Part shown: one piece after another, positions 5,470 to 15,980 of the stretch
How the letters are laid out: each line of letters starts with the position of its first letter
Numbering within the stretch: position 1 is the stretch's first letter
From: Nitrospina sp. LS_NOB
GTDB lineage: Bacteria; Nitrospinota; Nitrospinia; Nitrospinales; VA-1
Assembly (NCBI GenBank): GCA_001542995.1
Contig: LFLA01000024.1
Coordinates: 132,499-179,121 of the forward strand
Reading direction: 5' to 3'
Length of the DNA: 46,623 nucleotides
Notes under the pieces: model-generated
Seen by the model: only the letters and a program-made list of their open reading frames with translations
The model's database searches: none
Told to the model about the DNA's origin: nothing
Made by a program: the position numbers and the translations under genes

Positions 5470-5951
5470 CAGATAATTTTTTTCAACTCCTTGATCACAT
5501 CGCGAGGCACAAGTTTTGTGACATCGCCCCCGTGCCGGGCGATTTCCTTAACCAGATTAGAACTCAGGAAAGAATATTCCTGGCTGGGAATCATAAATAA
5601 AGTTTCGACAGATTCGTCGAGCGTCCGGTTCATCAGTCCCATCTGCAGTTCAAATTCAAAATCACTGATGGCCCGCAGTCCTTTTATCACTACAGAAGCT
5701 TTTTTAGAATGTGCCAGCGAGATGAGCAGATTATCAAAGGAGACGACCTCAATCTTGCTAAATTTTTTTGTGGCATTTTTGATAAACTTGACCCGATCTT
5801 CTAGAGAAAATAAAGGATTTTTTTTTGGGTTGAGCGCAACGGCAACGATGAGTCGGTCAAAGAGTTTCATGGCCCGGCGCATAATATCAATGTGACCAAA
5901 AGTGACCGGATCAAAAGTTCCCGGATAAAGAGCGATACGATTCTTTTTCAT
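5469..5951 (-). CDS. coaD: Phosphopantetheine adenylyltransferase
   Basis: Adenylates 4'-phosphopantetheine to dephospho-CoA, the penultimate step of coenzyme A synthesis. The 160-aa length is normal. The N-terminal nucleotidyltransferase signature 'YPGTFDPVTFGHIDI' contains the TxGH motif, and the C-terminal part has the conserved 'SSNLVKEIA..GGDV..LVP' region. It is the first gene of a two-gene unit with the downstream aminotransferase, overlapping it by one base. Start ATG at 5951 is the only sensible choice. Nothing unusual in the sequence. Confidence 0.96.
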   Translation of the reverse strand: MKKNRIALYPGTFDPVTFGHIDIMRRAMKLFDRLIVAVALNPKKNPLFSLEDRVKFIKNATKKFSKIEVVSFDNLLISLAHSKKASVVIKGLRAISDFEFELQMGLMNRTLDESVETLFMIPSQEYSFLSSNLVKEIARHGGDVTKLVPRDVIKELKKII

Positions 5952-6109
5952 AAGTAAGCCTTGAGGAAAAAGCAGGATTATATCGCCAAAATAAAATTTG
6001 GCAAATTTTTAAAGAACGGTTTTTGGGCCAGCCCGAGTTGAGAAGTGTAACAGGGACTTTTGTCTTTTATTTAATGTCAGGGAGGAGATTTTACCAGCCT
6101 TTTTTGAGG

Positions 6110-6240
6110 GAGACCTTTGCGTAAGTCGAAAAAAACAGAAAAGCGGGATTCTTCACTGCGTTCAGAATGACACGAAACGCCGGTTTGTCATCCTCGAGGA
6201 GCCGAAGGCGACGAAGGATCCGGGGTTATGCAAAGGTCTC
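6110..6240 (+). repeat. Dispersed inverted-repeat element, copy 1
   Basis: A 131-bp copy of the element described in the findings. It begins GAGACCTTTGCGTAAGTCG and ends TTATGCAAAGGTCTC, so the ends are inverted repeats. Inside, 'GATTCTTCACTGCGTTC.GAATGACA' faces 'TGTCATCCT...GACGAAGGATC'. Transcribed, it would fold into one long hairpin. It carries no coding sequence and sits between coaD and the nxr leader. Confidence 0.85.
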
Positions 6241-6534
6241 TTTTTGAGGGCAATATGGGGGCAAAAAAATGGATTTTTTTCATAATTTTCCTGAACTTTT
6301 AAAAATTTTTGAAATTTCGGTGGTTATTGCCAGTTATAGGGAAAATAACAGTAAATTATCATGCGGAAGATAATCGGTAAAACTCCTTTAAATATAAGGA
6401 CTTTAGAGGATTGCAAATTTTTTTATTTTTTTGTAAAAATTACGTGAAAATCTTGTTTTCAGGGGCTATATTTATGGGAATACTTCTAGTGATTTTACCC
6501 GTTATTTTTTCTTTTTTTTAAGTCTCGTATTTTC

Positions 6535-6563
6535 TTGACATTATACTGGAAAACCCATATAAC
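6535..6563 (+). promoter_or_regulatory. Probable sigma-70 promoter for the nxr operon
   Basis: A perfect -35 TTGACA at 6535-6540 and a 5/6 -10 TATAAC at 6558-6563 are separated by the optimal 17 bp. Transcription would start near 6570, giving a leader of about 395 nt before nxrA. The surrounding 300 bp upstream is very AT-rich with A and T tracts, as expected for a strong promoter. I see no second site of similar quality closer to the gene. Confidence 0.6.
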
Positions 6564-6569
6564 ATGGCC

Positions 6570-6966
6570 TCATCTAGAAAAAGGGCAGAAAGTTTGATTC
6601 GAAATACAGGGCAAAATATGAGACTTAAAAGCATGATTCGCCCCTTAATATCCAGTTGTTGCGGAGAAGTTTTTATTAGGGACGTTTAATTTTTTCTCAG
6701 TCTTTGTGTCTGTTGTGATGCCATTTGGCGCGGGTTTTAGCGCGTTAGCTATTTTTGTTTTGTTAGGTTGTTGTGTGTTTGTTTTAGAGTTGAGTAAAGG
6801 TTTTAAAGTTTAGCAAAGTGGTACGAGTAGTAGGTTAGTTGGAGGTGAAAAGTCGCGAGGCTGGGAGGCTCCGAAGAAGTTAGTAGAAGTGTAGTAGTGA
6901 AACAGTTGTAATTGGGTTCGGATAAGCCGGGCCCGCAATTACCAAGATTCACAAGGAGGTTTGTAT
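6570..6966 (+). promoter_or_regulatory. Long nxrA 5' leader with pre-SD hairpin and strong ribosome binding site
   Basis: Between the predicted start site and nxrA lie ~395 nt with no convincing gene. The stretch 6690-6900 is unusually rich in G and T on this strand. At 6908-6942 GTAATTG pairs with CAATTAC, and an inner GGTTCGG pairs with CCGGGCC around an ATAAG loop, giving a stable hairpin that ends ten bases before the Shine-Dalgarno AAGGAGGT at 6953-6960. The ATG at 6967 follows with a six-base gap. Such a hairpin could stabilise the mRNA or control translation (inference). The remaining gap 6241-6534 is AT-rich, with nothing recognisable. Confidence 0.5.
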
Positions 6967-9900
6967 ATGAGGTTAAACAGACGTAAGTTCTTGCAGGTGA
7001 GTGCTGGTGTAGCGACAGCTATGGCATTGACGAGCAAGAGGGTTGGAGCTCAGCTGAAACCCGTAGTGAAAGTCGGGAATCCGCTGGAAGCTTATCCTGA
7101 CAGACGGTGGGAAGAAGTCTACCGTGACCAGTATAAGTATGAGCGTTCTTTCACGTATTGTTGTTCTCCGAACGACACCCATCAGTGTCGCGTACGTGGA
7201 TTCGTACGTAATGGCATCTTGATGCGTATCGAGCAGAACTACGATCATCACAAAGTTCGCGATCTGTATGGTAACCAAGCTGACGCTGCGTGGAATCCTC
7301 GCATGTGTCTGCGTGGTATGACGTATCCCCGTCGTGCTTACGGTCCTTATCGGAATAAATATCCGATGATTCGTGTGGGCTGGAAGCAATGGGCGGATGA
7401 TGGATTTCCTTACCTGGACAAGGAAAATCGTGAAAAGTATAAGATGACAAGCCGGGGCACGGACGAATTTGTTCGTATGACCTGGGATCAGACTTTTACG
7501 TACCTCGCAAAGGGTCACATTGCGGTCGCTAAGGCCTACAGTGGAGCTCGTGGTGCGCAGCGTCTGAAGAATGAAGGCTATCAGCCTGAAATGATCGAAG
7601 CCATGAGCGGATCCGGTCCCCGTACTTTTAAGTATCGCGGCGGTATGGGTCTTCTTGGTGTAGTTGGTAAGTACGGTGTATACCGTCTTGCTAACCAAGT
7701 TGCTCTGTTGGATTCAATCATTCGTGGTCGTGGCCCTGGTAAAGTGTTGGGTGGACGTGCATGGTCTAACTACACCTGGCATGGTGATCAGGCTCCTGGT
7801 CATTCCTGGACACATGGAATGCAGACCTCTGATATCGACTTCGCTGACCATCGGTATGCGAAGCTAACGATTCAGTGGGGTAAGAACCTGATTGAGAATA
7901 AAATGCCTGAAGCGCATTGGTACACAGAAATCATGGAGCGTGGTGGTACGCTGGTTGCAGTTGCTCCTGAGTACAATCCGCCTGCAACTAAAGCGGATTA
8001 CTGGATACCGGTTCGTGCAGGTCTTTCTGACATCTCCCTTTTCTTGGGTGTTGCCAAAATTATCATGGACGAAGGTCTTGTGGACATCGATTACGTAAAG
8101 GACTACACAGACATGCCTCTGTTGGTTCGTACGGATACGTTGATCCGCTTGCATCCGGATGATTTCATTCCGGGCTACAAGGCTCAGTCTCTGCCGAAAG
8201 ACGGCTTCACCACCAAGTGGATGAAGAACTTCAACCGTGACATGATGCCTGACTACACCGTATGGGATGCTAATACGGATAAGCCGGTCGCTATCACGCG
8301 CGAAGACATCGGCGCTAAGATGAGAAAGAAAAATATCGATCCTGTATTGGACGGTGTTTTTGACATTAAACTCGTAAGCGGCAAAACCATCACGGTCATG
8401 CCTCTTTATGAGATGTATAAAGTTCATCTGAAGGATTACGACATTGATACGACCAACCAAATTTGTCACGCTCCGAAGGACTTAATCGTCCGCTTGGCTC
8501 GCGACATTGGTACGATCAAACCTGTTGAAATCCATTATGGTGAAGGAATCAACCATTACTTCCACGCAACGATGCACAACCGTGCGTCTTATGTTCCTCT
8601 GATGCTGACAGGTAACGTCGGTCCTAAAGGTTCCGGTTCCCATACTTGGGCTGGTAACTACAAGGCTGGTAACTACCAGGGTTCGCATTGGTCTGGACCT
8701 GGCTTCGCGGCCATGGTTGCGGAAGATCCTTTCAACATAGTCATGGACCCTTCCAAGAATATTGACTGGAAGAATGTTAAGGGCTACCTGAAAGGTGAGG
8801 AAGTCAGCTACTGGGCGCATCGTGATAAAGCGCTGATCGTAAATACCCCGCGCTATGGCCGGAAAGTATTTACGGGACGTACGCATATGCCTACGCCTAC
8901 CAAGCTGTGTTGGTTTGTTAACGTTAACGTTATCAATAATGCTAAGTGGTTCTACGAGCTGGTGTTCAACACCAACAACAACGTAGACATGATCGTAGCT
9001 CAGGACATCGAGTTCACAGGTTCCTGCGAATACAGTGACATCGTATTGGCTCCGAACTCATGGGCCGAGTTTGAAAGTTATGAAATCACTTCTGCATGTT
9101 CGAATCCGTTTCATCAGATTTGGGGCGGCACGGGAATCAAACCTATCTTCGATACTATCGATGATAACTTGATTCATCGTGAGTTCTCTCGGCGGATGGC
9201 TGAGGTGACAGGTGATAAGCGTTTCATGGATCATATGAAGGTCTATGAAGGTAAAGCGCCGAATCGCACCAAGGCTATGATTCGTCGGTTGTTCACGACG
9301 TCTACAACGGGTATGGGTTACAACATCGACGATATCATCAACGGCAAGTATGGTGAGCCGGGTGCATGTCTGTTGCTGTTCAGAACCTATCCTCGGTCTC
9401 CCTTCTGGGAGATGTATACGGAGTCTAAACCATTCTACACGCCTAACGGCCGCATCCAGTTCTACAATGATGAGCCGGAAGCGATTGAGTATGGTGAAAA
9501 CTTCATCGTTCATAGGGAAGGCCCAGAAGCAACGCCTTACCTGCCGAACGTAATCGTATCAACCAATCCTTACATCCGCCCGGATGACTACGGAATCCCG
9601 GAAGACGAGCAAGATCCGGATCTGCGTCACGTTCGGAACATCAAGAAACCTTGGTCTGCTGTACGTACGACTAAGAACTTCTTGTGGGAAAAAGGATATC
9701 GGTTCTACTGTGTTACACCTAAATCTCGCCATACAGCTCATAGTTCCTGGGCAACCACTGACTGGAACATGATCTGGAACAACAACTTTGGTGATCCTTA
9801 TCGAATGGATAAGCGTTCTCCGGGTGTTGGTGAGTGGCAGGTACACATGAATCCGTTCTTGTGTAAAGATCTTGGAATCAACGATGGTGACTATATCTAT

Positions 9901-10510: not shown

Positions 10511-11788
10511 ATGCCTGAAGTCTATAACTGGCAACTAGGTCGGATGGCCACATACGTCTACGACGAAAAGCATCCGAAAGAGCAGTTCACGTTCGTATTT
10601 AATACGAATCGTTGTATTGCTTGTCAGACCTGTACAATGGCCCATAAATCTACCTGGACCTTCTCGAAGGGTCAGGAGTATATGTGGTGGAATAATGTAG
10701 AAACGAAGCCTTACGGTGGCTATCCTCAGTTTTGGGATTGGAAGATCCTGAAAATGCTGGAGCAGTCTAATCCCGGACAGAATGTCTGGAATGTACGTAA
10801 GACCTCAAACAAAGCGATCCATGGTGTTTACGAAGGTGTTACCATCTTCGAAGCTCCTGCCAAGATCGGTTTGAACCAGCAAGCAATCGGTTATGTACCG
10901 ACTGATGAAGAGTGGCGCTTCCCGAACTTCGGTGAAGATACCGCTCATGGTCGTGAGTTCACCCAGTCTCGCGAGGGAACATTCGGTGGTGACAACGGCA
11001 CACGGTCAGTATTGCCGGAGCATAAAATCTGGTTTTTCTATCTGCAACGCATTTGTAACCATTGCACGTACCCGGGTTGTCTGGCGGCGTGTCCTCGAAA
11101 GGCAATCTACAAGCGCCAAGAGGATGGCATCGTTCTGATCGATCAGAGTCGTTGTCGTGGTTATAAAAAATGTGTAGAGCAGTGTCCTTACAAGAAGCCT
11201 ATGTTTCGTGGTACGACACGAATCTCTGAGAAATGTATCGCCTGTTATCCCCGTATTGAGGGTCTCGATCCTCTGACGGAAGGTGATCAGATGGAGACGC
11301 GTTGTATGGCGGCCTGTGTTGGCAAGATCCGTTTACAGGGTCTGGTCAAAATCGGCAGCAATGGCGAATGGGCCCATGATCCGGATAACCCACAGTACTA
11401 TCTGATTCGGGACCGGAAAGTGGCCTTACCGTTGTATCCGCAACTGGGTACGGAGCCTAACGGATATTACATTCCGTCACGGCACGTTCCTCGGGCGTAT
11501 TCTCAACAGATGTTCGGACCGGGTGTTGATCATTCTATCGATCAGTACATGGTTCCCGATCGAGACCTGTTGGGCGTTCTTCAGTTGTTCCGGACGACAC
11601 AGCGTATCATCTTCAAATGGAAACGTGAGCCAGGTCCGAAAATTTTCGAGACCAACATTCACGGTAAGAAGTTTGAAATGTACAATGATACGGTTATCGG
11701 GTTTAACCGGAAAGGTAAAGAAATCATCCGTGTTACGGTTGAAGAGCCTTTCTATGTACGACCTGAAGAGCATCCGGGCGCAATCTAA
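10511..11788 (+). CDS. nxrB: Nitrite oxidoreductase beta subunit, iron-sulfur electron transfer
   Basis: Carries electrons from NxrA through iron-sulfur clusters. The 425-aa product has four cysteine groups: C35-x2-C38-x2-C41-x3-H45; C182-x2-C185-x4-C190-x3-C194; C215-x5-C221-x3-C225; and C242-x2-C245 with C265-x3-C269. The opening 'MPEVYNWQLGR' and 'KGQEYMWWNNVETKPYGGYPQF' region are hallmarks of Nitrospira/Nitrospina NxrB. The fourth ligand of the first group is His rather than Cys. There is no signal peptide, consistent with export bound to NxrA. An AAGGAGGT lies at 10498-10505, six bases before the ATG. It follows nxrA after 82 bp containing a GC hairpin. Confidence 0.96.
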   Translation: MPEVYNWQLGRMATYVYDEKHPKEQFTFVFNTNRCIACQTCTMAHKSTWTFSKGQEYMWWNNVETKPYGGYPQFWDWKILKMLEQSNPGQNVWNVRKTSNKAIHGVYEGVTIFEAPAKIGLNQQAIGYVPTDEEWRFPNFGEDTAHGREFTQSREGTFGGDNGTRSVLPEHKIWFFYLQRICNHCTYPGCLAACPRKAIYKRQEDGIVLIDQSRCRGYKKCVEQCPYKKPMFRGTTRISEKCIACYPRIEGLDPLTEGDQMETRCMAACVGKIRLQGLVKIGSNGEWAHDPDNPQYYLIRDRKVALPLYPQLGTEPNGYYIPSRHVPRAYSQQMFGPGVDHSIDQYMVPDRDLLGVLQLFRTTQRIIFKWKREPGPKIFETNIHGKKFEMYNDTVIGFNRKGKEIIRVTVEEPFYVRPEEHPGAI

Positions 11789-11932: not shown

Positions 11933-12919
11933 GTGAGTAAAAAGACTATTGTATTTATGATGTTGTTTGCTTTCGTTCTGGGTATGTCCAGCGCGAATGC
12001 TGCCACCATCAAAGCTGTAAAAGTTCAGGGGAATATTCCGATCAATGCGGATGACCCTTTCTGGACTCGTTATGGTCCTACTTTCCACAAGCACGTTGTT
12101 GTGGATTTGGATCCTCAAATGATCACCAATCCCATGTGGCCCGCTCCGGCGACCAAATGGGTGAACGTTCGAGCCGTAACTAATGGTAAGGAAATCGCAG
12201 TTCGCCTGAGCTGGACAGATTCGACTCGTAACGACATCATGGTTCAATCTCAGCAGTACAAAGATCAAGCAGCTATCATGTTCCCTGTGAAGCAGTCTGG
12301 CGAAGAGCCTCCGTTCACAATGGGTGGTGATGGTGAGCGTGTTAACATCTGGCAGTGGAAAGCGACCTGGGATAAAGAAGGCGCTGGAATGGCTGGCAAT
12401 GCTGGCATGCAGGATATGGAAGATCAATATAAGTTCATGGCTATGGGTTCTGCCGGTTATTACATGTATGAACCTTCTGGTATGCTGACTGGTAAAGATT
12501 TTGCTACTAATACTGGCTCTAAAGCAATGGTAGACAAAGGTCAAGGAGCTGGCGATATCAGTAAGCGTGGTACCTATGTTGATTTTGGTATGGGTAAAAA
12601 CGAAGGCGTGTACAACCCGGCGCGTGCTACCGGTAACATCCTCGCTGATGCCTCCATGCGTATTTCTTCCGTTGAAGATATGAATGCAGAAGGGTTTAGT
12701 ACCCTGACCACTCAGGCTCATCAGGATGTACAAGGAAACGGCAACTGGTCTAACAACCGTTGGTCAGTTGTTTTCAAACGTCCTTTGAAGACAGACGATT
12801 CTAATGACACGCAGTTCACCAGCGGAAAAACTCCGATGGCGATTGCGGTTTGGAATGGTCAGAACAAAGAAAGAAATGGTCAGAAGGCTGTAACGCAGTG
12901 GAATGAACTGCAGTACTAA
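11933..12919 (+). CDS. nxrC: Probable NxrC: secreted ethylbenzene-dehydrogenase-type heme b subunit
   Basis: A 328-aa protein with a Sec signal peptide: 'KK', a hydrophobic stretch, and a likely cut after 'SANA' near residue 23. The mature part has the features of the gamma subunits of type II DMSO reductase enzymes (EbdC, DdhC, NxrC): 'VNVRAVTNGKEIAVRLSW.D', 'QAAIMFPV', and a C-terminal 'WSVVFKRPL' and 'PMAIAVWNG..KERNGQKA'. These fold as a beta-sandwich binding one heme b by Met and Lys. It would take electrons from NxrB to a cytochrome c in the periplasm. Start GTG at 11933 follows GAGGAGGGA at 11919-11927. It is the last gene before a strong terminator. Family assignment is confident; exact heme ligands are not assigned. 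Confidence 0.85.
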   Translation: MSKKTIVFMMLFAFVLGMSSANAATIKAVKVQGNIPINADDPFWTRYGPTFHKHVVVDLDPQMITNPMWPAPATKWVNVRAVTNGKEIAVRLSWTDSTRNDIMVQSQQYKDQAAIMFPVKQSGEEPPFTMGGDGERVNIWQWKATWDKEGAGMAGNAGMQDMEDQYKFMAMGSAGYYMYEPSGMLTGKDFATNTGSKAMVDKGQGAGDISKRGTYVDFGMGKNEGVYNPARATGNILADASMRISSVEDMNAEGFSTLTTQAHQDVQGNGNWSNNRWSVVFKRPLKTDDSNDTQFTSGKTPMAIAVWNGQNKERNGQKAVTQWNELQY

Positions 12920-13728: not shown

Positions 13729-14115
13729 ATGCACGAAGGAATATTCATAGCAGCTTTTGCGGGATTAAAGCAGGGCAAAAAACTGGAGATGATAGCCCAG
13801 AATTTAGCCAACGTCAATAACACCGGTTATAAGCGCGCCCAGTTGGCATTTAAAGAATTAATGCCCCCTTTTCCGCCTGATTCGGGTCTGGAAGCTGGGG
13901 AAAACGTATTGTTACCTCCCAACAAATCCAATTCAAATGTCTCCTACGTCGCCATAACAGATCAATATACGGATTTCACCCAGGGAGGGTTCAAACAAAC
14001 CGATGGAGCATTGGATTTAGCCTTGAATGGGCCTGGATACTTTAGCGTGTTGACTGAGGAAGGGACTCGTTTCACCAGAAACGGAAATTTCAGATTGGAT
14101 ACAGCACTTTCATGA
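13729..14115 (+). pseudogene. Truncated flagellar rod/hook protein (FlgF/FlgG type)
   Basis: The first 125 residues match the N-terminal half of flagellar basal-body rod proteins: an N-terminal helix 'MHEGIFIAAFAGLKQ', 'MIAQNLANVNNTGYKR', then 'DLALNGPGYFSVLTEEGTRFTRNGNFRLDTA'. Full-length FlgF/FlgG has ~240-260 residues and continues with a second half and the C-terminal 'VNLV.EM..MI' helix. Here the frame stops at 14115 and no such C-terminus is found before flgI. The piece 14113-14187 is an open frame of 24 codons with no flagellar likeness. This is a deletion, not merely a frameshift. It belongs with the flgI and flgL remnants downstream. Confidence 0.85.
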
Positions 14116-14205
14116 TTACTGTTACGGACACGGGCAACAGCAATACAGGTACTCTCACATATGTATTCACGGCAGATATAGTCTAAATCTCAAACTGAGG
14201 AAAGT

Positions 14206-15340
14206 ATGTTGAATCATTATTTCGGACAAAAATTCTGGGCAGTTTTTATACTGGCATTCTTTCTCGCAAGCCCGGCTCATTCTGCGCGGATAAAAGATTT
14301 ATCTGCCATTAAAGGAGTCCGAAGCAACCAATTGATCGGTTTGGGCTTGGTGATTGGACTGACGGGAACCGGTGATAGTGCGACCAACGTATTCTTTTCC
14401 ATTCAGACGATTGTCAGCATGCTGAAAAAGATGGGAGTAACGGTTCCCACAGCAGAAGTTGACCAGTTAAAATTCAAAAACATCGCAACGGTTATCGTCA
14501 CGGCAAGCCTTCCTGCATTTGCCTCACAAGGGGACCTTATTGATGTAACGGTGTCTTCGTTGGGTGATTCTAAAAGTCTTCAGGGTGGAACACTTCTAAT
14601 GACACCACTAAAAGGCCCTGACAGCAATACCTATGCGGTGGCCCAGGGCCCGCTCCCGATTGGGGGTTTTTCAGTTGCGGGAGGCGCTCGAGGAATTCAG
14701 AAAAACCATTTAACGGTCGGAAGAATTGTAAATGGCGCTATGGTCGAAAGAGAACTTAAATATAATTTCAATGCCAAAGATGAAATCATCCTGGCATTGA
14801 AGAAAACAGATTTCACCACCGCAAGTAGAATCAGCAAAGCGATCAATGATGAGATGATATGAAGGATGCTCTGGCCGTAATGGTTGATGGACGAACGGTT
14901 AGGGTAGCGGTTCCCGAGTTGTATCGGAAAAATACTTCCAGTTTTGTTACAAGAATTGAGAGTCTCGACGTCATTCCAGACTCGGAAGCCAAAGTTATTA
15001 TTGATGAACGTACTGGAACTGTAGTGATGGGCGAGAATGTAAGAATTTCCTCTGTTGCCGTCGCCCATGGAGCCTTGTTCATCCAAATTAAGGAAGAAGC
15101 GTTCGCTTCCCAACCTCCCCCTCTAGCACCAGAAGGTGCCGAAACAGTCATTCTTCCTCGAACTCGGTTAGCAGTGGGGGGAAGGACAAGACAAGCTTCT
15201 CGTCATTCCTAAAAGTGTATCTCTGGGAGATGTTGTTAAGGGGCTGAACTCCATTGGAGTCACACCAAGGAGATTTAATCGCGATCCTGCAGGCCATCAA
15301 AGCATCAGGAGCCCTCCACGCTCGCTTGGAACTTATTTAA
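14206..15340 (+). pseudogene. flgI: Flagellar P-ring protein FlgI, disrupted by frameshifts
   Basis: FlgI forms the periplasmic P-ring around the flagellar rod. The remnant begins with a signal peptide (ends 'SPAHS') and 'ARIKDLSAIKGVRSNQLIGLGLVIGLTGTGDS', then keeps the family order through three breaks. Frame 1 runs to 14862; it then shifts to a second frame starting around 14859 ('KDALAVMVDGRTVRV...'); a third frame from about 15177 reads 'EGQDKLLVIPKSVSLGDVVKGLNSIG'; and after about 15270 the proper C-terminus 'DLIAILQAIKASGALHARLELI' ends at 15340. The second break follows a G6 run; the first and third are not in long homopolymers. Nearly all of the protein can be recovered, so the decay is fairly recent or partly sequence error. 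Confidence 0.88.
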
Positions 15341-15540
15341 GGTTTCAATGAAATTTCCGGAAAAATTTTCCCCTTTGCATCCGAAATCTGCAGGATTTCC
15401 CAGCTATCCCGCCGCATGCATATTATATAACCATATATATTTAAAGGGTTTATTGGGTAAAATTTCGATACCTGGATTTGTGGAGGATTTTGGTACGGTG
15501 TTTGCAAAATTTTATTAAAGGGATTTTAAATGAGGACAAT

Positions 15541-15980
15541 ATGGATTTCATAAAATCTTCTCAGATTCAAAATACGTTATTTAATCAGTTAACAGAGAAG
15601 AATCTGGAACGTATGAGACGGCAGAGAATTTAGGTTTGGGCGGCGGTAAGAACGTATTCACAACTTTATTCAAAGTGAGGGATGCCCTCAATAATAATGA
15701 TACTTTTGCACTTCTGGCATCTTTGGATAATCTGGATTCGAGCCTTGCATCCATCAATAATAGCCGAGCAATTGTTGGGGTTTCATTAAACCGGGTTCAG
15801 GCAACAGATTTCATCCATGCGCAGGATATTGTGAATCAATCGGATCAGTTGGCGAAAATTGAGGATGCGGATGTCGTGAAAAGCATTTCGGATCTCGCTA
15901 ATTTGGAGTTTGCACTCCAGGCAACTTTAGCAGCAACGGCTCAGATTTTGCAGCCCACCCTTTTGGACTTTCTGCGTTAA
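15541..15980 (+). pseudogene. flgL: Flagellar hook-associated protein FlgL remnant with internal deletion
   Basis: A short N-terminal piece from 15541 ('SSQIQNTLFNQLTEKNLERMRRQ') resembles the D0 helix of flagellin-like FlgL. It stops at 15633, and the following frame from about 15630 jumps to the C-terminal part: 'NVFTTLFKVRDALNNND' and 'SISDLANLEFALQATLAATAQILQPTLLDFLR', the classical C-terminal helix. FlgL is normally ~300 residues or more, so the middle is gone. The 200 bp between flgI and this remnant (15341-15540) holds no recognisable flgJ or flgK; one 56-codon open frame at 15349 has no family resemblance. The group shows loss of flagella. Confidence 0.8.

What the first reader, a model, noticed from the sequence alone, without database searches (positions are those of the whole stretch)
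6535..6966. Long structured leader on the nitrite oxidoreductase operon
A near-consensus promoter lies ~430 bp before nxrA, giving a ~395-nt leader. Its middle is unusually G/T-rich, and a stable hairpin ends ten bases before the Shine-Dalgarno. For the main energy enzyme of the cell such a leader may set mRNA stability or respond to a signal. It does not match a riboswitch class I can recognise.
Basis: partly seen in the sequence, partly recalled or inferred. Interest (0 to 1): 0.55.

Follow-up and report, generated by a model that had tools for sequence, protein, structure and literature searches.

The report
Long conserved nitrite oxidase mRNA leader
The gene for the main energy enzyme of a marine nitrite-oxidising bacterium starts with a roughly 400-letter untranslated stretch that its relatives also keep, ending in a small RNA hairpin right before the ribosome's landing site; what it does is unproven, but some other relatives carry a different, clearly structured and unlisted RNA element in the same place.

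Summary
Observation confirmed. A near-consensus promoter (TTGACA-N17-TATAAC, 6535-6563) lies 403 nt before nxrA, giving a leader of about 396 nt. The same promoter precedes 21 of 58 nxrA-type genes examined, at 359-416 nt in 20 of the 21. The leader is kept while DNA further upstream has diverged to shuffled level. As a whole it is not unusually stable (z +0.91). Supported structure is confined to the 3' end: hairpins 6841-6872 and 6897-6952, the second abutting the Shine-Dalgarno. Covariation is thin in the window's own type, moderate in a sister type. No Rfam family matches. A candidate leader peptide (6618-6689) and terminator-like hairpin (6725-6748) suggest attenuation, but neither clearly beat its control. 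Best reading: a lineage-specific structured 5' UTR on a highly expressed operon, probably acting on mRNA stability or ribosome loading, not a known riboswitch. The most novel result lies outside the window: other Nitrospinales carry, in the nxrA leader, an unlisted three-way-junction RNA with strong covariation (14 of 31 pairs changed on both sides); the model finds 10 copies in 9 of 77 phylum genomes, 8 before nxrA and 2 before a probably secreted protein.

The parts
6386..6397 (+). upstream box A (CTTTAAATATAA)
   Evidence: strict pattern found in 5 of 15 g1/g6 upstreams at 148-173 nt before the -35; looser forms seen by eye; no chance control; function inferred
6444..6472 (+). upstream box B (GTGAAA-N17-TATATT), second promoter or activator site
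   Evidence: [GT]TGAAA-N17-[CT]A[TC]ATT in 13 of 15 g1/g6 upstreams that carry the main promoter and 4 of 7 in family f2; no chance control was run for this box
6535..6540 (+). -35 hexamer TTGACA
6558..6563 (+). -10 hexamer TATAAC
6571..6966 (+). predicted 5' leader of the nxrABC mRNA
   Evidence: start inferred from promoter; conservation: within-genus identity 0.88 / 0.85 / 0.96 for first 150 nt after the -10, middle, last 75 nt, against 0.66 far upstream (shuffled 0.65)
6618..6689 (+). candidate leader peptide MRLKSMIRPLISSCCGEVFIRDV*
   Evidence: start codon ATG/GTG/TTG and no stop in the first 10 codons in the 14 leaders that have this region (L024 lacks it), but codon-permutation test p about 0.2 and little third-position bias
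6725..6760 (+). terminator-like hairpin (6725-6748) and U-rich tail
   Evidence: found by scan; 2 of 25 shuffles score as high in this leader; hairpin energy z -0.06
6841..6872 (+). hairpin with inner GNRA-type tetraloop (AGUC-GCGA-GGCU, 6851-6862)
   Evidence: loop GCGA/GUGA/GAAA in 6 of 7 g1 and 0 of 4 g6 sequences of alignment A1
6897..6952 (+). terminal extended hairpin abutting the Shine-Dalgarno
   Evidence: last 75 nt 84% identical between genera g1 and g6
6953..6959 (+). Shine-Dalgarno AAGGAGG
   Evidence: CACAAGGAGGTTTGTAT identical in the 11 type-A leaders apart from a 1-nt insertion in L013
6967..10428 (+). nxrA
10511..11788 (+). nxrB-like iron-sulfur subunit
11933..12919 (+). nxrC-like haem b subunit (ethylbenzene dehydrogenase gamma type)

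Best explanation
The nxrABC operon is transcribed from a strong housekeeping-type promoter about 430 bp upstream, and the mRNA carries a ~396-nt leader kept by selection. Its working part is the 3' end: two hairpins, the second ending directly at the Shine-Dalgarno. I think it most likely acts as a constitutive 5' element that sets mRNA stability and ribosome loading of a highly expressed operon, with regulation mainly at the promoter and its upstream boxes. Shown: promoter, position, sequence conservation, the terminal fold and its lineage range. Inferred: transcription start, high expression, stability/loading function, absence of a ligand.
For: Promoter in 21 of 58 upstreams at near-constant distance. 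Leader conserved while far-upstream DNA is at shuffled level. Last 75 nt are the best conserved leader part (0.96 in genus, 0.84 across genera), above four-fold degenerate sites of nxrA in the longer g1-g6 comparisons (0.68 and 0.71). Terminal hairpin z -2.25 in the window and -3.25 in L010, but only -1.58 in L002. Type-A model R2 finds the 11 training loci and nothing else at E <= 0.1 in 64 genomes, so the element looks nxrA-specific. Sister type B leaders also end in a hairpin before the Shine-Dalgarno, with 5 of 11 pairs changed on both sides. No Rfam match up to E = 5.
Against: No transcript data. The 5' and middle leader are only about as conserved between genera (0.70-0.72) as four-fold sites (0.68 and 0.71; two short contigs gave 0.90 and 0.91). 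Type-A covariation is thin. Shine-Dalgarno openness is not consistently raised: in the window it is less open than in shuffles (0.36 against 0.57), and 4 of the 12 leaders tested are clearly more open. One relative with a 1.7 Mb genome (L024, G005) has only 243 nt from the -10 to the start, so most of the 5' half is dispensable there.
Confidence: 0.45

Rival explanations
1. Regulation is at the DNA level only: conserved boxes upstream, a strong promoter and a GC-containing discriminator right after the -10 (a feature of stringently controlled promoters, recalled) explain the conservation; the long leader is passive.
For: Box B in 13 of 15 g1/g6 upstreams. GCC within the first bases after the -10 in 12 of 15 g1/g6 sequences; L011, L017 and L024 differ. 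Whole-leader folding energy is ordinary.
Against: The best conserved leader stretch is the last 75 nt, far from the promoter, and it folds; sister type B keeps its hairpin through two-sided changes.
Confidence: 0.2
2. Attenuator: ribosomes translating the leader peptide 6618-6689 decide whether the hairpin at 6725-6748 plus U tract terminates transcription early.
For: Start codon kept as ATG/GTG/TTG in 14 of the 14 leaders with this region, 20 codons long in 7 of 14; best of the three frames. The best terminator-like site falls at the same place (leader position 175-191) in 9 of 14 leaders, and 3 or fewer of 25 shuffles score as high in 6 of 14.
Against: Coding test p about 0.2; reading length 10-29 codons. 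No leader beat all its 25 shuffles (1 to 25 reached), all scores are below zero, and no site was found in L012. Window hairpin z -0.06. No run of one codon type.
Confidence: 0.15
3. The leader is a sensing RNA (small ligand, protein or temperature) that controls nxrA translation; the GUGAA/UUCAC stem competes with a small ACAAG-GAGG-UUUGU hairpin around the Shine-Dalgarno.
For: The two helices share bases (sequence; the alternative hairpin is in the minimum-energy fold of L002). In family f2 the conserved leader end can pair with its own Shine-Dalgarno. Other Nitrospinales carry a strongly structured RNA at this place.
Against: I saw no aptamer-like unpaired core in type A (by eye, not a formal search); no Rfam match; model R1 of the other element does not hit the leader (best 8.4 bits, E 0.23, at 6279 outside it; inside the leader at most 3.3 bits).
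Confidence: 0.15

Closest known systems
5'-UTR stabiliser hairpins such as the E. coli ompA leader (recalled, not read)
   Same: highly expressed gene, long leader, hairpins before the ribosome site
   Different: ompA's key stem-loop is at the 5' end (recalled); here the supported structure is at the 3' end next to the Shine-Dalgarno
Ribosome-mediated attenuators (trp/his type; recalled)
   Same: order short ORF - hairpin with U tract - structural gene
   Different: no regulatory codon run, coding test not significant, terminator score not above all shuffles in any leader
Moco RNA motif (PMC2408646, only the start of its abstract seen, in the listing)
   Same: lies before genes for molybdenum-cofactor enzymes; NxrA is one (molybdopterin oxidoreductase domain)
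   Different: no Rfam match of any family in the leader
nxr regulation in Nitrospira (PMC6606698, passages read)
   Same: nxr paralogs with different expression and proposed separate regulation
   Different: there sigma-54-dependent regulators are proposed; here a sigma-70-like promoter and a long leader

Membership tests
Known Rfam family (release 15, 4227 families) | match at the family's gathering score, or any match up to E = 5 | tested here: not met
   only a tmRNA and a tRNA elsewhere in the window
Ribosome-mediated attenuator | translated, conserved leader peptide | tested here: inconclusive
   start kept in 14 of 14 leaders with the region, coding test p about 0.2
Ribosome-mediated attenuator | intrinsic terminator in the leader | tested here: inconclusive
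   same place in 9 of 14 leaders, but no leader beat all 25 of its shuffles and all scores are below zero
Ribosome-mediated attenuator | alternative antiterminator fold | not tested
   no search for it was made
Structured 5' UTR with conserved helices | compensatory changes across relatives | tested here: inconclusive
   type A: 3 of 28 pairs, 153 of 500 shuffles as high, though 0 of 500 for cells changed on both sides and for the score; type B: 5 of 11 pairs, 46 of 500
Structured 5' UTR with conserved helices | conserved promoter distance and length | tested here: met
   20 of 21 at 359-416 nt
mRNA stabiliser | longer half-life with the leader than without | not testable with these tools
   needs an experiment
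Three-way-junction nxrA element of other Nitrospinales (model R1) | covariance-model match | tested here: not met
   no match in G000; window 5900-7100 with filters off: best 8.4 bits, E 0.23, outside the leader

The most novel reading that the evidence does not exclude
Nitrospinales control their nitrite oxidoreductase by several lineage-specific leader RNAs: in genera of families f1, f3 and f4 by a new riboswitch-like three-way-junction RNA (core UGCCCUCCCU the same in all 8 aligned copies; in two g8 genomes its closing stem runs straight into a U tract, like an intrinsic terminator), and in the window's genus by an unrelated leader that does the same job with a competing Shine-Dalgarno fold.
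Probability: 0.2. Interest if true: 0.75.

Novelty: new member of a known kind. Interest (0 to 1): 0.45.

Why it matters
Nitrospinota are described as the most abundant known marine nitrite oxidisers (abstract starts of PMC8026999 and PMC10839748, listed); my searches of the held papers turned up nothing that I could see on how they set the level of their main enzyme. A conserved leader gives a defined target. The three-way-junction RNA in sister genera would, if it binds a ligand, be a new regulatory RNA class in front of a central nitrogen-cycle gene and could reveal what these cells sense.

Tried and rejected
Riboswitch of a known class: rejected, no Rfam match at gathering or up to E = 5. 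Globally structured leader: rejected, z +0.91. Terminator: visible by eye and at the same place in 9 of 14 leaders, but no leader beat all its 25 shuffles, and the window's hairpin has average energy. Leader peptide: attractive by eye, coding test not significant; kept only as a candidate. A similar short ORF in family f2 was looked at by eye and judged not length-conserved. Shine-Dalgarno kept open by the hairpin: mixed, 4 of the 12 leaders tested clearly more open than shuffles, the window less open. CsrA control: the only CsrA match in the genome covers 23 of 53 positions in a 46-aa frame, so not pursued. Window leader as a diverged copy of the three-way-junction element: no match. The element near nxr-like genes elsewhere: 0 matches in 60 loci, 464,916 bases (the 60 of 62 loci L117-L178 that are not L143 and L150). 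A 23-nt tandem array above the promoter: autocorrelation only 1.8 sd, tied with lag 33, not convincing.

Literature: searches, 88 of the held library listed no paper that I could see to be on an nxr leader, promoter or riboswitch in Nitrospinota (only listings were seen, and one search listed 20 of 662); most subscription papers are not held. Passages only were read from PMC12342949, PMC6606698, PMC8026999 and PMC10839748.

Rows left out: of the loci fetched, those without a readable NxrA start (L015, L016, L019, L020, L069-L071) or without upstream DNA (L036, L038) and duplicates of the same place were not among the 50 upstreams; 8 more (L080, L092-L098) were added. L005 has its start near the contig end and was placed by hand. 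L017 has TTGACA-N18-TAAAAT and is not counted among the 21. The 14 uORF starts were chosen by hand. L092 (G060) looks like a degenerate three-way-junction element and was left out of alignment A3; model R1 does not find it.

Full report
WHAT IS THERE. The finding's coordinates are right. TTGACA (6535-6540), a 17-nt spacer and TATAAC (6558-6563) make an 11/12 sigma-70-type promoter; one search missed it because its rule needs T at the last -10 position. The -10 ends 403 nt before the nxrA ATG at 6967, so a leader of about 396 nt follows if transcription starts 7-8 nt later (inferred). The G/T-rich middle is real: 70.6% G+T, 9% C over 6690-6900, matched in skew by 0.1% of windows of that size. 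The hairpin ends ten bases before AAGGAGG as stated, but an outer helix GUGAA/UUCAC extends it right up to the Shine-Dalgarno.

THE GENE. The 1153-aa product matches PDB 7b04 chain B (nitrite oxidoreductase subunit A) over residues 1-1151 and sits with type II DMSO-reductase-family beta and gamma genes. The genome (G000, 2.65 Mb, 98.8% complete) has one copy of the leader and one NxrA match.

RELATIVES. The 64 held genomes of the order were searched; 40 have an NxrA match. I examined 58 upstream regions (50), 3 of them of distant NxrA-like genes. The promoter TTGACA-N17-TATAAN is in 21 of 58: 10 of genus g1, 4 of g6, 7 of family f2; 20 of the 21 lie 359-416 nt from the ATG, the exception (L024, a 1.7 Mb genome) 243 nt. 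Shuffled versions of the 50 give it at 0.0008 per sequence.

CONSERVATION. Within six g1 type-A sequences the leader is 0.88 (first 150 nt after the -10), 0.85 (middle) and 0.96 (last 75 nt) identical; DNA 100-400 nt above the -35 is 0.66, shuffled 0.65. Between g1 and g6 the leader values are 0.70, 0.72 and 0.84 against shuffled 0.61-0.64. Four-fold degenerate sites of nxrA, compared with the window's copy, give 0.68 and 0.71 for L009 and L010 and 0.90 and 0.91 for two short contigs. So the last 75 nt stand out; the rest is conserved, but between genera no more than silent sites of the gene.

STRUCTURE OF THE WINDOW'S TYPE. The leader as a whole folds no better than shuffles (z +0.91). In the 13-sequence alignment of the 5' part only four consensus pairs appear, near the expected start site. 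In the 11-sequence alignment of the 3' part there are two hairpins: 6841-6872, with an inner GNRA-type loop in 6 of 7 g1 sequences (GCGA, GUGA, GAAA) and 0 of 4 g6 sequences, and 6897-6952. Energies of the terminal hairpin: z -2.25 in the window, -3.25 in L010, -1.58 in L002; of the 6841 hairpin z -1.53. Pair counts: 95.8% of cells paired, 3 of 28 pairs with two-sided changes; shuffles reach 3 in 153 of 500 but never reach the number of such cells (7) or the covariation score; sliding the partners drops pairing to 19-60%. 12 of the 20 pairs of the terminal hairpin never vary. The sister type B leaders (6 in g1, 1 in g6) end in a different 11-bp hairpin with 5 pairs changed on both sides (46 of 500 shuffles) and a covariation score reached by 1 of 500. 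A model of the type-A part finds its 11 training loci and nothing else at E <= 0.1 in 64 genomes; among 26 other nxrA loci it gives one weak match, type B L021 (21.8 bits, E 0.0011), and two weaker ones.

ATTENUATOR IDEA. A short ORF at 6618-6689 has a start codon (ATG, GTG or TTG) in the 14 leaders that have this region, but the codon-permutation test gives p about 0.2 and there is little third-position bias. A hairpin with a U tract follows at 6725-6760. Its best score falls at the same place in 9 of 14 leaders, and 3 or fewer of 25 shuffles match the leader's best score in 6 of 14, but no leader beat all its shuffles, all scores are below zero, and the window's hairpin has average energy. 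I keep it as a rival at 0.15.

OTHER LINEAGES. In genera g7 and g8 and families f3 and f4 the nxrA leader holds instead an ~80-nt element: a long closing stem, a GGGACU(U)GCCCUCCC hairpin and a variable hairpin, i.e. a three-way junction. Two members fold at z -8.2 and -5.2. In 8 sequences 14 of 31 pairs carry two-sided changes, with 0 of 500 shuffles as high. Rfam has no match. Model R1 finds 10 copies in 9 of 77 phylum genomes at E <= 0.001, reverse-strand echoes of the same places not counted; 8 are the training copies before nxrA, 2 are new and precede a protein with a carboxypeptidase-regulatory-like domain and, by eye, a signal peptide, in genus g13. In L098 and L018 the closing stem runs into a U tract like an intrinsic terminator (not scored). 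The window's genome lacks it, and it was not found in 60 nxr-like loci, mostly of other phyla. In family f2 the leader end can instead pair with its own Shine-Dalgarno, without two-sided changes.

INTERPRETATION. The nxrA leader is a real, selected feature, and its working part is most likely the terminal hairpin region. A constitutive effect on mRNA stability or ribosome loading is the simplest reading (0.45). Conserved boxes above the promoter suggest that regulation is at least partly transcriptional.

LIMITS. 

Noticed in passing
L098:258-347 (-), L018:527-616 (-), L044:622-711 (-), L049:1282-1371 (+), L062:190-279 (-), L097:1264-1353 (+), L095:268-357 (-), L058:471-560 (-), L216:1467-1553 (-), L220:1501-1587 (+): Unlisted three-way-junction RNA element with strong covariation in the leaders of nxrA of other Nitrospinales, and twice before a probably secreted protein; no Rfam match where tested.
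   Followed up: partly
L031, L032, L034, L037, L054, L067, L039 (last ~45 nt before nxrA): In family f2 a conserved UAAAACC...GGUUUUA pairing would cover the Shine-Dalgarno, and in the g14 sequences an upstream GGUUU could compete for the same strand: a possible translational switch.
   Followed up: no
window 6386-6397 and 6444-6472: Two conserved boxes above the nxrA promoter; the distance of box B to the main -10 falls in steps of about 23 nt (66-69, 91-92, 114-115, 137-139) among the 17 sequences that have both (differences taken).
   Followed up: partly
window 6110-6240: Repeat unit bounded by 15-nt inverted arms (GAGACCTTTGC...GCAAAGGTCTC); 114 full or partial matches to 6100-6245 in this genome, many in tandem clusters.
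   Followed up: partly
window 13729-15980: Flagellar genes behind nxr look broken: a 128-aa rod/hook piece, FlgI split into two overlapping frames (14206-14862, 14859-15212) and a 114-aa flagellin C-terminal piece; the only CsrA match in the genome is partial too.
   Followed up: partly
L030, L033, L051, L055, L056, L059, L063-L066, L080, L093, L094, L096: A second class of nxrA copies sits shortly behind a conserved gene ending in about ..IDFPDWE..DGACDRCVEVYELRAG, mostly with purine-rich AAAGGAGG-like and AAGGGAGGGCAAG boxes in a ~150-nt spacer (by eye).
   Followed up: no
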